Of a stretch of DNA of 29,025 nt, positions 5,687 through 27,948 are shown one piece after another. Each line of letters opens with the position of its first letter. Within the stretch, counting starts at the first letter, position 1. A model generated the notes under the pieces. That model saw nothing but the letters and a program-made list of their open reading frames with translations, did no database searches and was not told where the DNA came from. The DNA comes from a virus: the IMG/VR virus record IMGVR_UViG_3300042453_000121, positions 1-29,025 of that record, one strand, 5' to 3'. The position numbers and the translations under genes were made by a program.

Positions 5687-6043
5687 ATGGAAAATTGCGC
5701 CCTGTTTCTAGCAACATTGCTACATTCTGCGACTAATACGCATTTTTTTCATTGGAGTACAGGCTCATACGCCCAACACAAAGCTCTTGGCAATTATTAC
5801 GATGAAATCGTGGAGTTAGTCGATACTTTAGCGGAATCTTACATGGGTAAATACGGAAAGCTAACCACTTTCCCAAGCGTTTACCACCAACCAAAAGACC
5901 CAATTAAGTACATGGAATCGCTACAAAACTTTGTGGCTGATGCTCGCCAAGATTTACCGCAAGATTCTGAGTTGCAAAATTTAATTGACACTATTGCTGA
6001 ATTAATTAATACAACTACTTATAAACTTAAGTTCTTGAAATAA
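5687..6043 (+). CDS. Ferritin/Dps-like phage protein (DUF5856-type)
   Basis: The 118-residue helical protein has a THFFHWSTGSYAQHKALGNYYDEIVELVD stretch whose His, Asp and Glu spacing (H-x3-W, H-x2-L, Y-x-E-x2-E/D) resembles the metal-binding helices of Dps and ferritin-like proteins. I recognise it as the phage family I know as DUF5856. Whether it binds iron, protects DNA or is a virion component is not established. It follows a TATAAT box and a strong AAAGGAG site, so it is likely well expressed and may begin a new transcription unit. Confidence 0.7.
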   Translation: MENCALFLATLLHSATNTHFFHWSTGSYAQHKALGNYYDEIVELVDTLAESYMGKYGKLTTFPSVYHQPKDPIKYMESLQNFVADARQDLPQDSELQNLIDTIAELINTTTYKLKFLK

Positions 6044-6054
6044 AAGGATATTTT

Positions 6055-6294
6055 ATGCCTTTGACTATGCAAGATTCTAGCAAATTGGTGGATATGTTAC
6101 GAAGTTCAGCAACTTTGCCAGCCGCCAAAATAGACGGTGATGTATTTGTTCGTGCTGCTCAAAGTGCTGGTATTCCTGATGATATGAATACTTTAAACAA
6201 AATAGTAAATTTAGTAAATCAAGGTAAATCCCCCAACGAAGCCGCCTTAATTGTGGCTGGAAAACTACAAGGAGTTCAAAATGCCACTCGTTAA
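6055..6294 (+). CDS. Small helical protein of unknown function
   Basis: The 79-residue product starts at ATG 6055 behind AAAAGGA. It begins MPLTMQDSSKLVDMLRSSAT and contains a segment DMNTLNKIVNLVNQGKSPNEAAL, giving an all-helical prediction. It overlaps the next gene by 14 bases. The next gene also begins with MPL, but I see no further similarity. No family recognised. Confidence 0.65.
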   Translation: MPLTMQDSSKLVDMLRSSATLPAAKIDGDVFVRAAQSAGIPDDMNTLNKIVNLVNQGKSPNEAALIVAGKLQGVQNATR

Positions 6295-6466
6295 ATCAGG
6301 TAGCAAAGAAGCGGTCGGTAAAAACATCAAGGCTGAGATGAAGGCTGGCAAGCCTAAAAAGCAAGCCGTAGCCATTGCTTTAGCTACTGAGCGTAAATAC
6401 GCTAAAGGTAGCCGTAAGAATAAGCTAGAAGAAGCATACGGTAAGTACATTGAAGAAAAAGCATGA
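6281..6466 (+). CDS. Lysine-rich small protein (DUF6496-like)
   Basis: ATG 6281 is preceded by AAGGAG at the right spacing, making it better than the upstream in-frame ATG at 6251. The 61-residue product is highly basic (KSGSKEAVGKNIKAEMKAGK, then KKQAVAIALATERKYAKGSR). The pattern of G-K-x-x-K-Q-A-V-A-I-A-L is one I associate with the small phage/bacterial family DUF6496. Function is unknown; a DNA- or RNA-binding role is suggested only by charge. It opens a run of four tiny basic genes. Confidence 0.7.
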   Translation: MPLVKSGSKEAVGKNIKAEMKAGKPKKQAVAIALATERKYAKGSRKNKLEEAYGKYIEEKA

Positions 6467-6729
6467 GTAGGCGTGACCAAATCCGTGCTGCAATGGATAA
6501 GCACGATAAGCCTATACCTAAAACTACAAAGGGCAAAGGTCGCAATTACTTATCTACAGAAGAAGGTGCTGGCATGACCGCCAAAGGTCGAGCCGCCTAC
6601 AATCGTAAAAACAACGCAAATTTACAAGCCCCCCAATCTAGTGGGCCACGCCATGATAGTTTCTGTGCAAGGTCTAAAGGCTGGACTGGGGAACGAGGAA
6701 AAGCAGCAAGAGCGAGATGGAGTTGCTAA
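6463..6729 (+). CDS. Small basic protein (DUF6321-like)
   Basis: The 88-residue protein is coupled by ATGA to the preceding gene. It has a GAGMTAKGRAAYNRKNNANL segment and a SFCARSKGW segment, ending in GERGKAARARWSC. The arrangement of a T-A-K-G-x-x-x-Y core, an S-F-C-A-R motif and a C-terminal R-W-x-C is what I know from the aquatic-phage family DUF6321 (name from recall). Two cysteines placed at the end of each half could coordinate a metal, but this is not shown. Function unknown. Confidence 0.7.
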   Translation: MSRRDQIRAAMDKHDKPIPKTTKGKGRNYLSTEEGAGMTAKGRAAYNRKNNANLQAPQSSGPRHDSFCARSKGWTGERGKAARARWSC

Positions 6730-6911
6730 TGAAAAACGGACTATACGCAAACATACACGCCAAGCGTGAGCGGATTAAAGCTGGTTCAGGCGAAAAGATG
6801 AAAAAGGCTGGGGCTAAAGGCGCACCAACCGCCCAAGACTTTAAAGATGCCGCCAAAACTGCTAAAAAGCCCCGCAGACAAGTAATCTCTGACGCTATGA
6901 AGGATATGTAA
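6729..6911 (+). CDS. Small lysine-rich protein of unknown function
   Basis: ATG 6729 overlaps the previous stop as TAATG and has GGAG six bases upstream; the ATG at 6717 is the alternative. The 60-residue product contains NIHAKRERIKAGSGEKMKK followed by GAPTAQDFKDAAKTAKK. I recall this R-I-x-A-G-S-G-E-K-M pattern from many environmental phages next to DUF6321-like genes, always without assigned function. High Lys and Ala content suggests a disordered, nucleic-acid-associated peptide. Confidence 0.6.
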   Translation: MKNGLYANIHAKRERIKAGSGEKMKKAGAKGAPTAQDFKDAAKTAKKPRRQVISDAMKDM

Positions 6912-6912
6912 T

Positions 6913-7059
6913 ATGTTTAAAAAAGAAAAGATTAAACCTGAGAATTCTTTGTTGCAACCGCATAAACAGACCACGCTAGAAAAGAACGAAGATAAGCGTA
7001 TGAAGCGTAAAGCAGCATTGATGAAGCACTTTAATAAGTTTGCAAAGGATATGGCATAA
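6913..7059 (+). CDS. 48-residue basic peptide
   Basis: A short frame from ATG 6913 to TAA 7057-7059 fills the space exactly between the previous stop and the next ATG at 7060. It reads MFKKEKIKPENSLLQPHKQT and ends in a basic helix (KRMKRKAALMKHFNKFAKDM). The lysine-rich composition matches its three upstream neighbours. There is no recognisable family; the compact fit and coupling to the next gene (TAAATG) are the support. Confidence 0.55.
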   Translation: MFKKEKIKPENSLLQPHKQTTLEKNEDKRMKRKAALMKHFNKFAKDMA

Positions 7060-8100
7060 ATGGCTACATTGGCTGAAGTTCTACGCCAAGCTGGATATGT
7101 AACACCCCAAGGTCAGGTGGTAGGCCCACGCACAACCACGGCTCAAACTATGAGCAACTACATTCGTAACATCATTCCTAATGCTGCCCAAAACCTAGCC
7201 CAACAACGCTCAGATATTGACGCTGCCTTAACTATGGGTGACCAAGGCATACAAGTGGGCGATAGAGCCGCATTTGAACGCCAAATGGCTCAAGTACCCA
7301 ATTTGATGGGATTGACCGCTTATCATGGCACACCGCATACTATTAAGGGCAAATTTGACATAAACAAGGTAGGAACTGGCGAAGGCGCACAGGCTTATGG
7401 ACATGGGATGTATTTTGCTGAATCTAAAGACTTAGCTGATGTTTACCGCAAAAAATTGACCAATGAAGCAGGTAATCCAGTTACAGACCCTAATAATTCT
7501 ATTCAACTGCAAATTGGTAGGTTAGAAGACCAAATAAAACAGTTAAAACAATCGGATGACCCTAATGCAGGTTCAATGATTAAAGCCTATCAAAGCAGAA
7601 TTGATGAAATAAATAAGGCTGGCAATCTTTACAAAGTAGATATACCTGATGAATACATTCCTAATATGCTTGATTGGGATAAGCCTATTAGTCAGCAATC
7701 TGATTTGGTTAAAAATGCGTTATTAAATCATCCTGAAGTGCAAAAATATCTTGCAGAAGGTGAAGCAAAGCGTATTGCTATGAACAAAGCACAACCTGCA
7801 AGATTAGAAAAGTTGCCACAAATAGCAAATAAAGTATTTGATGAAAACAGGGTTTCAGGACAACAAGTTGTAGATAGACTAAATCAAGTTATAGGCGACC
7901 CTAAAAAAGTAAGCGAAATGCTTAATGAATTAGGCATTAAAGGCATACGCTACAAAGATGCTATGTCTAGGGGTGCTGATGAAGGCACAAGTAATTTTGT
8001 TGTATTTGACCCCGCAGAAGTCAAAATACTAGAACAAAACAGTAAACCACTAAGCCGCAAAGAAATAATTGAACAAGAATTAGAAAAAGTATCAAAATAG
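7060..8100 (+). CDS. ADP-ribosyltransferase-like protein (ART-PolyVal type)
   Basis: Residues 87-120 hold the pattern AYHGTPH ... GTGEGAQAYGHGMYFAE, with His89 and Tyr118 in the positions of the NAD-binding His and Tyr of H-Y-type ADP-ribosyltransferases. The domain closes with GIRYKDAMSRG and SNFVVFDP near 295-318. I recognise this as the ART domain described in phage polyvalent proteins. The first 85 residues are different, Gln/Ala-rich and of unknown role, and about 130 residues of charged helix are inserted mid-domain. Predicted activity is transfer of ADP-ribose from NAD to a host or phage target; the third catalytic residue is not clear by eye. It lies just before the terminase genes. 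Confidence 0.72.
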   Translation: MATLAEVLRQAGYVTPQGQVVGPRTTTAQTMSNYIRNIIPNAAQNLAQQRSDIDAALTMGDQGIQVGDRAAFERQMAQVPNLMGLTAYHGTPHTIKGKFDINKVGTGEGAQAYGHGMYFAESKDLADVYRKKLTNEAGNPVTDPNNSIQLQIGRLEDQIKQLKQSDDPNAGSMIKAYQSRIDEINKAGNLYKVDIPDEYIPNMLDWDKPISQQSDLVKNALLNHPEVQKYLAEGEAKRIAMNKAQPARLEKLPQIANKVFDENRVSGQQVVDRLNQVIGDPKKVSEMLNELGIKGIRYKDAMSRGADEGTSNFVVFDPAEVKILEQNSKPLSRKEIIEQELEKVSK

Positions 8101-8141: not shown

Positions 8142-8432
8142 ATGGTTAATAAACAATTAAAAAATAATCCTAAGGGGGCAGGCAGACCAGCAGGAAGCCC
8201 TAATAAAAGCACCGCATTGGCTAGAGAAGCCATAGCACGCTTTGTTGATGGTAATAGCCATAAGTTACAAGAGTGGCTAGAAGCCATTGCTGATGACCCT
8301 AAATACGGCCCTAAACACGCATTTGATTGCTTTATGCAAGTGGCTGAATACCATGTACCTAAACTAGCCCGTACTGAGCATACTGGTAGCGAGGATAAAC
8401 CCATTCGATATGTGGTTACATGGAAGAAGTAA
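8142..8432 (+). CDS. terS: Terminase small subunit
   Basis: The 96-residue protein starts with a basic GAGRPAGSPNKSTALAREAI segment and continues with helices ending EYHVPKLARTEH. The G-R-P-x-G-S-x-N-K start with a helical region and a Lys-Ala-Arg-Thr-Glu end is typical of small terminases of this phage group, which bind the packaging start site and recruit the large subunit. It begins behind TTGAGGTAGT and overlaps the large-subunit gene by 13 bases. The 41-base gap before it shows no clear promoter. Confidence 0.75.
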   Translation: MVNKQLKNNPKGAGRPAGSPNKSTALAREAIARFVDGNSHKLQEWLEAIADDPKYGPKHAFDCFMQVAEYHVPKLARTEHTGSEDKPIRYVVTWKK

Positions 8433-9781
8433 TCGAATATACAGACCTCAATATTGAACTGTATAAGCCTAGAGATGTATTTTTAGACTTTCACGATAGA
8501 ACCCAACGATGGGCTGTGATTATTGCCCACCGCAGGGCTGGCAAGACTGTAGCCTGTATTAACGATATTCTTTGGCGAGCTTTGACCGAAACTAAGGAAA
8601 ATGCCCGATATGCGTATATTGCCCCTTACTATGCCCAAGCTAAGTCTATTGCTTTTGATTACCTTATGCAGTTTAGTGAGCCTGCACGGGTTAAGCACAA
8701 TATTTCAGAGTTGTGGGTCGAACTATTTAACGGGGCTAGAATTCGTTTGTTTGGTGCAGACAATCCTGACGCACTTAGGGGTTTATACCTAGATGGCGTA
8801 GTGCTTGACGAATATGCCGACATGAAGCCAAAGATATGGGGCGAGGTTATCCGACCATTACTGGCTGACAGGCAAGGTTGGGCTACCTTTATCGGCACAC
8901 CAAAAGGCCACAACACCTTTTACGACATATACCAATACGCCACGCTAAACAAGGATGAGTGGTATAGCACCGTCTTACGGGCTAGTAAAACCAAGATATT
9001 GCCCCAAGCTGAATTGGATGATGCTCTTAAATCTATGAGCATAGACCAGTTTCAGCAAGAGTTTGAATGTAGCTTTGAAGCTGCCATACTGGGTGCTATA
9101 TACGGCACGGAGATGCGTTTACTCACCGATGCCGACCGAATCACCAAAGTAGAGTGCGACCCTATGTTTCCTGTACATACAGCATGGGATTTGGGCTACA
9201 ACGATGCTACGGCTATTTGGTGGTATCAAGTGGTGCATGGCGAGATTAGAGTATTGGATTACCACGAAGCACACGGTCAACCCATTATTTACTATGCCAA
9301 CCAAATTAAAGAACGACCTTATGAATATGGCACACATTGGCTACCCCATGATGCTCGTGCAAAAACACTAGCAAGTGGTGGCAAGTCAATAATTGAACAA
9401 TTAATGGATAAATTACCCCTAAAAAGCGGAAATTTGTTTAAAATTGTTCCAAATCTGTCATTACAAGACGGTATTCAAGCTTCAAGGATGGCATTAGCTA
9501 GGACTTGGTTTGATGCCTTTAAATGTCAAGACGGTATTGAGTGCTTGCGACAGTATCAAAGGGAATACGATGAGGATAAGAAAGTATTTCGAGATAAGCC
9601 TAGACATGATTGGACTAGTCATGGAGCGGATGCTTTTAGGATGCTTTCTATTGCTTGGCGAGATGAAACAGAAATTGAAAGACAAAATCAGCCGATTAAA
9701 GGCTTATTTGTCGGACAGACTGATGTGACCCTTGAGGAAATGTGGAAAAGCACACCAAAAACTAATTACCAAAGGTATTGA
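8420..9781 (+). CDS. terL: Terminase large subunit (packaging ATPase and nuclease)
   Basis: The 453-residue protein has an N-terminal ATPase with Walker A AHRRAGKT (36-43), Walker B GVVLDE (126-131) and coupling motif GTPKG (159-163). The C-terminal half has RNase H-fold nuclease acidic residues in AWDLGYNDATAIW (Asp257), probably Asp311 in HDAR and Asp404 in HGADAF. It powers DNA translocation into the prohead through the portal and cuts the concatemer. Length is normal for the family. It overlaps the small subunit gene and is followed directly by the portal gene. Confidence 0.95.
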   Translation: MEEVIEYTDLNIELYKPRDVFLDFHDRTQRWAVIIAHRRAGKTVACINDILWRALTETKENARYAYIAPYYAQAKSIAFDYLMQFSEPARVKHNISELWVELFNGARIRLFGADNPDALRGLYLDGVVLDEYADMKPKIWGEVIRPLLADRQGWATFIGTPKGHNTFYDIYQYATLNKDEWYSTVLRASKTKILPQAELDDALKSMSIDQFQQEFECSFEAAILGAIYGTEMRLLTDADRITKVECDPMFPVHTAWDLGYNDATAIWWYQVVHGEIRVLDYHEAHGQPIIYYANQIKERPYEYGTHWLPHDARAKTLASGGKSIIEQLMDKLPLKSGNLFKIVPNLSLQDGIQASRMALARTWFDAFKCQDGIECLRQYQREYDEDKKVFRDKPRHDWTSHGADAFRMLSIAWRDETEIERQNQPIKGLFVGQTDVTLEEMWKSTPKTNYQRY

Positions 9782-26124: not shown

Positions 26125-27948
26125 ATGGATGTGCGGATGCCCGATGGTACTTTAGTAAAAAATGTACCCGATAACATAACTCAAGCCGATTTATTGGCTC
26201 GTTATCAAGCATTTAAAACGCCTGATACTAGGGGTAATATCATTAATACTGATGTGCCTACCGTTGCAGGTCAAGTACCAAATCCACCTGTAACACCTGA
26301 GCCAAAACGCACAATGCAAGAAAAAATGATGGCATTGTATGAAGTGCCAGCTACTATGCTTTCAGGTGCAGCTTTGACTGTGCCAAGTGCTATATCTGCT
26401 TTGGTTACAGGCGAAGGGCCAACAGCTATGGCACAACGCAATATGTATCAACCTAGAAGCGGTGCAAGCCAAGATGTATTGCAAAGCATTGGTAGTGCGT
26501 TTGAAGCGTCTAAATTGCCCCCAATAATGCCTACAGGTATGTTACCAAGTTATGCTCGTATGGTAGGGGCTACACAACCACAAGTAGCTCAGACTGTTCA
26601 AGCTACTAGACAGGCTGTGCCAACTATGCCTGATTTATTACGCAGACAAGCACAACCCACAATGGCTGGTGTAGGTGCTGCTGCCACTCCTGAAGCCGTA
26701 ACTCGTACACAAATGGCTAGTCAGTTGCGTGTGCCTGTACAGTTAAGCAAAGGTCAAGCAGAGCGTGAATTAGGGCAACAACAATTTGAGATTGAAACAC
26801 CTAAAATTAGCCCTGAACTTGGAAAACCCTTGGTAGAAGCACAAGCTAGACGCAACGATGCTATTTTGCAGAACTTTGATGCTTTTGTGGATGCCACAGG
26901 TAAACAATCATTCGGTTTACGAGCTACTGGAAAAGCCGTTACGGATGTGCTTAACAAAGAAGCAGAAGCCGCTAAAACCAAAATTAATCAAGCTTATACA
27001 TTGGCTAAAGAAAAAGGCGAAACTGAAGCTCCTGTTGATTACGCACCATTAAAAGCGTTTATTGAAAACGAAACGCCTACAACAAGAACCGCTAACGCCC
27101 CTATATTAAATATTGTTTATGAGCAACTTGCTAAAAACGACCCTAAAAACACAGGTCAAATATCCATTAATGCGTTAGAAGATATTTACGCAGTAATTAA
27201 TAAAAATTATGTGCCAGCCACGCCAAATGCAAGTTATGGGCGTGATATGCGTAATATTATTAATGAGATTACTGAAGGCAAGGGCGGTGATTTATACCAA
27301 AAAGCTCGCAGATTACGCCAAGACTATGCTAAAAACTTTGAGAACATTGGTGCTATTGACCGTTTAATTAGCACTAAAGCAAACTCCGATGACCGAGTAG
27401 TGGCACTTGAGGATGTATTCCAAAAGTCTATCATTAATGGTTCATTAGACGATGTTAAAAATTTAGGGTTTGCACTCAAAAAGTCAGGCACACAAGGACA
27501 ACAAGCGTTTAAAGAATTACAAGGTCAAACTATTGAATATCTAAAAGACCGTGTAACCCAATCTATTGACACCGATATGTTCGGCAACCCAGTTGTAAGC
27601 CCTGCTAAGTTTAAGTCGGCAGTTCGTGAGTTAGACCAAGACGGCAAGCTAGATTATTTGTTTGGCAAAAAAGGCGCACAAGAAATTCGTGATTTGATGG
27701 AAACCACCATTTTGGTTAATGCCCCATTAAAAGGTGCAGCTAATTACAGCAATACGGCAAGTGCCGTAATTCGTGGCTTAGACATGATTAATCGTAGCCC
27801 AATCGGTAAAATACCAGTAGTGGGCAGCCTTACCAAATACAGTTTTGAAAAGGCCCAAGAAGCGGCATTAAAGAAAAAGATTCAAGAATCCATTAATTAT
27901 TCGCCAACAAAAATGGCTGAAGAATTGAAAAAAGGAAGCAAAAAATGA
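26125..27948 (+). CDS. Large internal/ejection-type virion protein
   Basis: The 607-residue protein begins with a short motif VRMPDGTLVKNVPDNITQADLLARYQ that I recall at the start of large internal virion proteins of podophages. The rest is mostly helical with a Pro/Met-rich segment at about 55-165, including a hydrophobic stretch TMLSGAALTVPSAISALV, and a long charged helix-rich C-terminal half. Such proteins are packaged in the head or tail and leave with DNA, some spanning the envelope. Homology to T7 or P22 proteins cannot be shown by eye. The stop overlaps the next start as ATGA. Confidence 0.6.
   Translation: MDVRMPDGTLVKNVPDNITQADLLARYQAFKTPDTRGNIINTDVPTVAGQVPNPPVTPEPKRTMQEKMMALYEVPATMLSGAALTVPSAISALVTGEGPTAMAQRNMYQPRSGASQDVLQSIGSAFEASKLPPIMPTGMLPSYARMVGATQPQVAQTVQATRQAVPTMPDLLRRQAQPTMAGVGAAATPEAVTRTQMASQLRVPVQLSKGQAERELGQQQFEIETPKISPELGKPLVEAQARRNDAILQNFDAFVDATGKQSFGLRATGKAVTDVLNKEAEAAKTKINQAYTLAKEKGETEAPVDYAPLKAFIENETPTTRTANAPILNIVYEQLAKNDPKNTGQISINALEDIYAVINKNYVPATPNASYGRDMRNIINEITEGKGGDLYQKARRLRQDYAKNFENIGAIDRLISTKANSDDRVVALEDVFQKSIINGSLDDVKNLGFALKKSGTQGQQAFKELQGQTIEYLKDRVTQSIDTDMFGNPVVSPAKFKSAVRELDQDGKLDYLFGKKGAQEIRDLMETTILVNAPLKGAANYSNTASAVIRGLDMINRSPIGKIPVVGSLTKYSFEKAQEAALKKKIQESINYSPTKMAEELKKGSKK

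What the first reader, a model, noticed from the sequence alone, without database searches (positions are those of the whole stretch)
7060..8100. ADP-ribosyltransferase-like protein beside the terminase genes
The sequence shows an H (residue 89), Y (118) and GTGEGAQAYGHGMYFAE pattern of ART-PolyVal-type domains, here as a free-standing 346-residue protein with an unrelated 85-residue N-terminus, placed between tiny basic proteins and the small terminase. Phage ADP-ribosyltransferases (T4 Alt/ModA type) modify host RNA polymerase, translation or defence proteins. A head-module location raises the possibility that this one is packaged and injected rather than made late. Target and packaging are inference.
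Basis: partly seen in the sequence, partly recalled or inferred. Interest (0 to 1): 0.65.

Follow-up and report, generated by a model that had tools for sequence, protein, structure and literature searches.

The report
Swappable phage effector gene beside terminase
This virus gene encodes an ADP-ribosyltransferase-like enzyme on a shared front end that, in related phages, carries about fifteen other kinds of protein at exactly the same genome position, so it looks like one interchangeable warhead of an arsenal that phages probably inject into bacteria.

Summary
The ORF, the His89/Tyr118 motifs and the position before the terminase genes are confirmed. The protein belongs to a large phage family with an invariant H-Y-N triad (H89, Y118, N312; 82/82 sequences). 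Pfam ART-PolyVal matches only below its cut-off (24.6 against 31.2 bits). A confident AlphaFold model (pLDDT 90.7) places H, Y and N on strands 1, 2 and 5, as in ARTs, but Foldseek retrieves no solved ART. It is an ART-like subfamily, not a T4 Alt/ModA type.

The 84-residue N-terminus is a conserved module, 88-98% identical while fused to unrelated C-termini: about 15 types, among them ART-PolyVal, R-S-E-clade ART, PBECR5 nuclease and ParB-like domains. All sit in one slot between tiny basic genes and the terminase. Half of the close relatives have the slot empty, with gene-exact junctions. Inside the ART domain, conserved blocks are separated by loops that assort almost independently (45 combinations in 57 proteins). 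There is usually no immunity gene, and no integrase was found.

Best reading: a polymorphic effector, probably packaged and injected, analogous to T-even internal proteins. Packaging, activity and target are not shown.

The parts
7060..7311 (+). Shared N-terminal module (residues 1-84), opening with an L-A-E-V-L-R motif; the same module carries about 15 different C-terminal domains in relatives
   Evidence: purifying selection against relatives, dN 0-0.057 vs dS 0.17-0.48
7312..8046 (+). ART-like catalytic domain (residues 85-329) with conserved blocks and hypervariable loops
   Evidence: Pfam ART-PolyVal 24.6 bits; AF2 pLDDT 90.7, pTM 0.85; A4 alignment
7324..7326 (+). His89, first active-site position, predicted strand 1
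   Evidence: 82/82 invariant; strand in model
7411..7413 (+). Tyr118, second active-site position, predicted strand 2
   Evidence: 82/82 invariant; strand in model
7423..7620 (+). Hypervariable loop cassette V1 (residues about 122-187), predicted helical; no DNA similarity even to close relatives
7687..7914 (+). Hypervariable loop cassette V2 (residues about 210-285), predicted helical
7972..7986 (+). Site of optional insert V3 (residues 305-309) just before the third active-site position; 41-62 aa inserts in 15 of 57 relatives, absent here
7993..7995 (+). Asn312, third active-site position (E, D or Q in classical H-Y ARTs), predicted strand 5
   Evidence: 82/82 invariant; 58/59 in an independent motif scan
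8050..8097 (+). C-terminal tail LSRKEIIEQELEKVSK (residues 331-346), kept when the middle of the gene is replaced
   Evidence: homology resumes at 8056 in L033 and L048; tail motif in 68/103 slot proteins, 1/804 other proteins (post hoc motif)
6251..7059 (+). Tiny basic genes forming the left border of the slot (6251-6466, 6463-6729, 6717-6911, 6913-7059)
8142..8432 (+). Presumed small terminase subunit, right border of the slot
   Evidence: empty-slot relatives rejoin at 8098
8420..9781 (+). Large terminase subunit
   Evidence: PHROG 2, E=6e-44

Best explanation
The gene is one allele of a polymorphic effector slot in a lineage of small, probably virulent tailed phages. Its 84-residue N-module, and perhaps the short C-terminal tail, are the constant 'carrier' that most likely brings the protein into the virion head. 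The middle is an exchangeable enzyme, here an ART-like domain with an H-Y-N triad. During infection it would be ejected with the DNA and use NAD+ to modify a host macromolecule, either to disable a defence or to take over a host process. Diversity arises at two levels: whole catalytic domains are replaced between the constant ends, and within the ART domain the loops around the active site are exchanged between conserved blocks, probably changing or hiding target contacts. Shown by sequence: the conserved slot, domain swaps, loop shuffling, gene-exact presence/absence, invariant triad and purifying selection. Inferred: NAD-dependent activity, packaging, injection, target.
For: ART-like; profile match of A4 to Pfam-positive ARTs. 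Constant N-module on different enzymes: ART-PolyVal above cut-off (L051 40.0 bits; L065 36.3 bits), ADPrib_exo_Tox (L190 66.6 bits), PBECR5 (L075 71.5 bits), ParB-like (L033). Fixed slot: in 104 of 107 distinct loci the next recognised gene is TerS, TerL or an MTase. Census of 65 TerL-anchored contigs: 32 empty, 26 with N-module and/or ART, 7 with another protein including Zeta_toxin. Gene-exact junctions at 7060/8098 and swap junction at about 7310. Loops: 29 V1 and 18 V2 types, 45 combinations; 49 expected if independent, 29 if fully linked. Homologous ART domains lie between portal and scaffold genes in Sulfitobacter phage phiGT1, near an internal virion protein gene in vir555, and next to a minor head protein gene in Tunturi_5. 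Different base composition of the ART domain (36% GC) and N-module (49%). Precedents: T-even Ip proteins share only an N-terminal packaging leader (PMC12373910), and T4 Alt is an injected ART (PMC9026906).
Against: No virion proteomics and no activity data. The third active-site residue is N, not E/D/Q, so catalysis could be weak or altered. Foldseek against solved structures gave no ART. The N-module has no known homologue and no demonstrated packaging role. Position in the packaging operon alone would also fit a protein made late and used inside the producing cell.
Confidence: 0.55

Rival explanations
1. Same ART-like enzyme, but not packaged: made late from the terminase operon and acting in the producing cell, for example excluding competing phages, protecting the terminase or portal from a host defence, or reprogramming late metabolism.
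For: It lies among the late packaging genes, with an abutting stop/start to 6913-7059. PMC9503650 raises protection of the packaging machinery as an alternative for ARTs beside terminases.
Against: It does not explain why one N-module is kept on nuclease, ParB-like and several ART domains, nor why homologous ART domains sit in or beside head and internal-virion genes in unrelated phages.
Confidence: 0.25
2. A polymorphic toxin of the MuF kind, used by phage or lysogen to kill competitors, with immunity proteins.
For: Constant N-terminus and variable, toxin-like C-termini including PBECR5 and ARTs, and a Zeta toxin in the same slot. A few loci (L024, L048) have a small extra ORF downstream.
Against: 69 of 76 loci have 60 bp or less between effector and small terminase, so there is no room for an immunity gene; MuF toxins have a small downstream ORF in 89% of cases and are tied to temperate phages (PMC5576092). 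No integrase in 13 related records. No MuF match.
Confidence: 0.1
3. A non-catalytic structural or binding protein that keeps an ART-like fold, since the acidic residue at position 3 is missing, with loops as binding surfaces.
For: N312 instead of E/D/Q; the large variable loops are what differs between alleles.
Against: H89, Y118, N312 and the surrounding glycines are all invariant across highly diverged phages, which suggests active-site constraint. N at this position is typical of the wider family rather than a decay product. Slot neighbours carry recognised enzyme domains.
Confidence: 0.1

Closest known systems
T-even internal proteins (Ip1-Ip3 and variants) and T4 Alt
   Same: Injected head proteins in a variable locus; members share essentially only an N-terminal packaging leader; arms-race diversification (PMC12373910, PMC9026906)
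   Different: The T4 leader is 10-19 residues and cleaved; here the constant module is about 84 residues, of unknown processing. The characterised Ip proteins are inhibitors, here enzyme-like domains. T4 Alt is an R-S-E ART. The phages are small and not T4-like.
Polyvalent proteins with ART-PolyVal domains (Iyer et al. 2017, PMC5512222)
   Same: ART of the H-Y type and the same domain repertoire (ART, ParB, PBECR), predicted to be delivered with DNA
   Different: Those are large multi-domain proteins with an H-Y-D triad; here one exchangeable domain per small protein, triad H-Y-N, and Pfam score below cut-off
MuF polymorphic toxins of temperate phages (Jamet et al. 2017, PMC5576092)
   Same: Constant N-terminus plus variable C-terminal toxin domain, encoded in the packaging module
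   Different: No MuF domain; generally no downstream immunity ORF; no integrase found; slot before the small terminase, often empty

Membership tests
Pfam PF18760 ART-PolyVal | Score above the curated cut-off (31.2 bits) | tested here: not met
   24.6 bits, E=4.7e-5, matching only the first third of the profile
ART superfamily, H-Y-[EDQ] clade | His in strand 1 and Tyr in strand 2 | tested here: met
   H89 and Y118 invariant in 82/82 and on strands 1 and 2 of the model
ART superfamily, H-Y-[EDQ] clade | E, D or Q in strand 5 | tested here: not met
   N312 on strand 5, 82/82
ART superfamily | Fold match to a solved ART | tested here: inconclusive
   Confident model but no significant PDB hit; two large helical insertions make up over half of the domain. 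An earlier low-confidence full-length model matched phage ART-PolyVal and polyvalent proteins only
ART superfamily | NAD-dependent transfer or cleavage | not testable with these tools
   needs purified protein
T4 Alt/ModA/ModB (R-S-E clade) | R-S-E active site | tested here: not met
   H-Y-N; clade definition from PMC5512222
MuF polymorphic toxins | N-terminal MuF domain | tested here: not met
   no MuF model among Pfam matches up to E=1
MuF polymorphic toxins | Small immunity ORF downstream | tested here: not met
   about 41 bp to the next gene here; 69/76 loci with 60 bp or less
MuF polymorphic toxins | Temperate phage | tested here: inconclusive
   no integrase in 13 related records, which may be incomplete; only one relative in the genome-contig scan
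Injected head proteins (T-even Ip/Alt kind) | Shared N-terminal module on otherwise unrelated proteins | tested here: met
   about 15 C-terminal types on one module
Injected head proteins (T-even Ip/Alt kind) | Presence in virion and ejection into the cell | not testable with these tools
   needs virion proteomics or a translocation assay

The most novel reading that the evidence does not exclude
A previously undescribed, non-MuF and non-T4 effector-delivery module in small tailed phages: one N-module acts as a general head-packaging tag for about 15 enzyme types. Its commonest enzyme is an H-Y-N ART whose target-facing loops are exchanged in nature as near-independent cassettes, giving combinatorial re-targeting.
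Probability: 0.35. Interest if true: 0.82.

Novelty: new variant of a known kind. Interest (0 to 1): 0.64.

Why it matters
If the N-module is a packaging tag, it defines a marker by which injected effectors, including ones of no known family, can be collected from metagenomes. The many unnamed C-terminal types in this slot would be candidate anti-defence or takeover proteins. The natural loop shuffling in the ART domain gives a ready series of variants for asking what ART specificity loops recognise, and whether bacteria sense them. It extends the T-even internal-protein idea to small phages of very different type.

Tried and rejected
First AlphaFold run on the full protein with close relatives only gave pLDDT 67 and was not usable for the core. 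Foldseek with it gave no PDB match but did match phage ART-PolyVal and polyvalent proteins. Foldseek of the good domain model also gave no solved ART, so the fold claim rests on motifs, strand placement and profile similarity. Sequence search of the PDB gave nothing relevant. PADLOC and NCBIfam gave nothing useful for this protein. The near-identity phage search of the window was empty. The first Pfam search against the record by family gave nothing at its threshold. D317 was considered as the third catalytic residue and rejected because it varies (E/N/K in 17 of 69). My first census counted L161 as empty; it is occupied. The N- and C-terminal motif counts used motifs written after seeing the sequences and are only suggestive. 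No published H-Y-N ART was found under that term in the library held.

Full report
The ORF at 7060-8100 encodes 346 residues with H89, Y118 and GTGEGAQAYGHGMYFAE at 105-121. It starts directly at the stop of a 48-residue basic gene and lies about 41 bp before the presumed small terminase gene. The window is a 29,025-base virus record without end repeats.

Is it an ART? Pfam ART-PolyVal matches with E=4.7e-5 but below its curated cut-off. An alignment of 82 sequences, half of them only about 30-40% identical to the window, keeps H89, Y118, N312, Y129 and several glycines without exception. A separate motif scan in phages related to Sulfitobacter phage phiGT1 gave H 59/59, Y 59/59 and N 58/59. 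With these sequences AlphaFold2 gives a confident model of residues 83-328 (pLDDT 90.7, pTM 0.85). H89 falls on strand 1, Y118 on strand 2 and N312 on strand 5, the arrangement described for polyvalent-protein ARTs, which have D at the third place (PMC5512222). Profile comparison links the family with Pfam-positive ARTs over motifs I-II. Foldseek finds no solved ART, probably because the two helical insertions make up over half of the domain; this leaves the fold claim short of proof. I therefore call it an ART-like H-Y-N subfamily and not a formal member of PF18760. It is not of the T4 Alt/ModA clade, which is R-S-E.

The N-terminus is the key. Searches with the whole protein returned loci that match only residues 1-86 or 1-94, at 88-98% identity. 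Their proteins continue into unrelated sequence. A search with the N-terminal alignment gave 70 distinct ORFs. Besides the window's ART type there are about 14 others, by my reading of the sequences. Pfam recognises ART-PolyVal above cut-off (L051, L065), ADPrib_exo_Tox (L190) and PBECR5 (L075); ParB-like and several nameless types also occur. In the same slot, with a different N-terminus, there is a Zeta-toxin kinase domain (L157). DNA comparison shows that homology to such alleles stops at about codon 84 (window 7310) and resumes at codon 333 (8056, the LSRKEIIEQELEKVSK tail) or around the stop. The N-module is under strong purifying selection (dN 0-0.057 against dS 0.17-0.48) and differs in G+C from the ART domain, 49% against 36%.

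The slot is fixed. In 104 of 107 distinct loci the next recognised gene is a terminase gene or a methyltransferase in front of it, and the previous ones are mostly the tiny basic genes. A census anchored on the large terminase, independent of the effector, gave 65 contigs with the left border: 32 have no gene in the slot, 26 carry the N-module and/or the ART, 7 carry another protein (corrected; contigs not dereplicated). Empty alleles match the window up to base 7060 and again from 8098, that is, exactly the gene. One empty relative has 99% identical large and 100% identical small terminase proteins (L147).

The ART domain is itself mosaic. Conserved blocks (motifs I-II, NLYKVDIPD, the block before strand 5, and TSNFVVFD) flank loops V1, V2 and optional V3. 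In 57 distinct proteins there are 29 V1 and 18 V2 clusters in 45 combinations; independent assortment predicts 49, complete linkage 29. Core blocks are on average 93% identical. The window and L003 have identical N-modules at protein level and identical small terminases, yet both V1 and V2 are unalignable at DNA level around a 92% identical 65-base block. V3 sits just before the third active-site residue, where ARTs are known to carry a target-recognition loop (own knowledge), so the loops plausibly determine what is modified. This is inference.

How it most likely works. A constant carrier with exchangeable enzymes, no immunity gene (69 of 76 loci have 60 bp or less to the small terminase), no integrase in 13 related records, and homologous ART domains inside or beside head and internal-virion genes of three other phages fit an injected effector better than a competitor-killing toxin. 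The closest precedent is the set of T-even internal proteins, which share only an N-terminal packaging leader and neutralise different restriction enzymes (PMC12373910), and T4 Alt, an injected ART (PMC9026906). MuF toxins are the closest polymorphic family but differ in domain, immunity gene and lifestyle (PMC5576092). ARTs encoded beside terminase genes have been noted before and read as packaged (PMC9503650), so location alone is not new.

What is not shown: catalytic activity, packaging, injection, target, host and lifestyle. The phage lineage is known here almost only from metagenomic contigs; its terminase is about 43-45% identical to those of HTVC010P-type pelagiphages and Rhodoferax phage P26218.

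Noticed in passing
L065, L067, L069, L071-L073, L117, L185, L191, L197, L200, L206, L216 (upstream of TerL): In many relatives a DNA methyltransferase gene is inserted between the effector slot and the large terminase, often with a diverged or different small terminase, so a second exchangeable position lies next to the first.
   Followed up: partly
window 8142-8432 versus L001, L004, L018, L051, L056: The small terminase itself is swapped: large terminases 81-95% identical to the window's can be paired with a small terminase only 45-47% identical.
   Followed up: no
window 5687-6043: A gene matching a PHROG family called 'starvation-inducible transcriptional regulator' (E=5e-28) and Pfam DUF5856 lies just upstream of the tiny basic genes and is conserved there in many relatives.
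   Followed up: no
window 6463-6911: Two tiny genes (6463-6729, DUF6321; 6717-6911) match opposite parts of single longer proteins in other phages (PHROG 28131, 11180), as if one protein had been split, or fused elsewhere.
   Followed up: no
L024:8694-8873 and L048:766-984: Small ORFs preceded by GGGGGAAT sit between effector and small terminase in the ParB-like and one ART-like allele; they could be partner or immunity genes specific to those alleles.
   Followed up: partly
L205:1211-3634: An 807-residue protein without any Pfam match occupies the slot; it has a different N-terminus but the same kind of C-terminal tail (ESRRETLERLFNNQK).
   Followed up: partly
window 26125-27948: A 607-residue protein near the end of the record without a PHROG match begins MDVRMPDGTLVKNVPDNITQADLLARYQ; by position it may be an ejection protein.
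   Followed up: no
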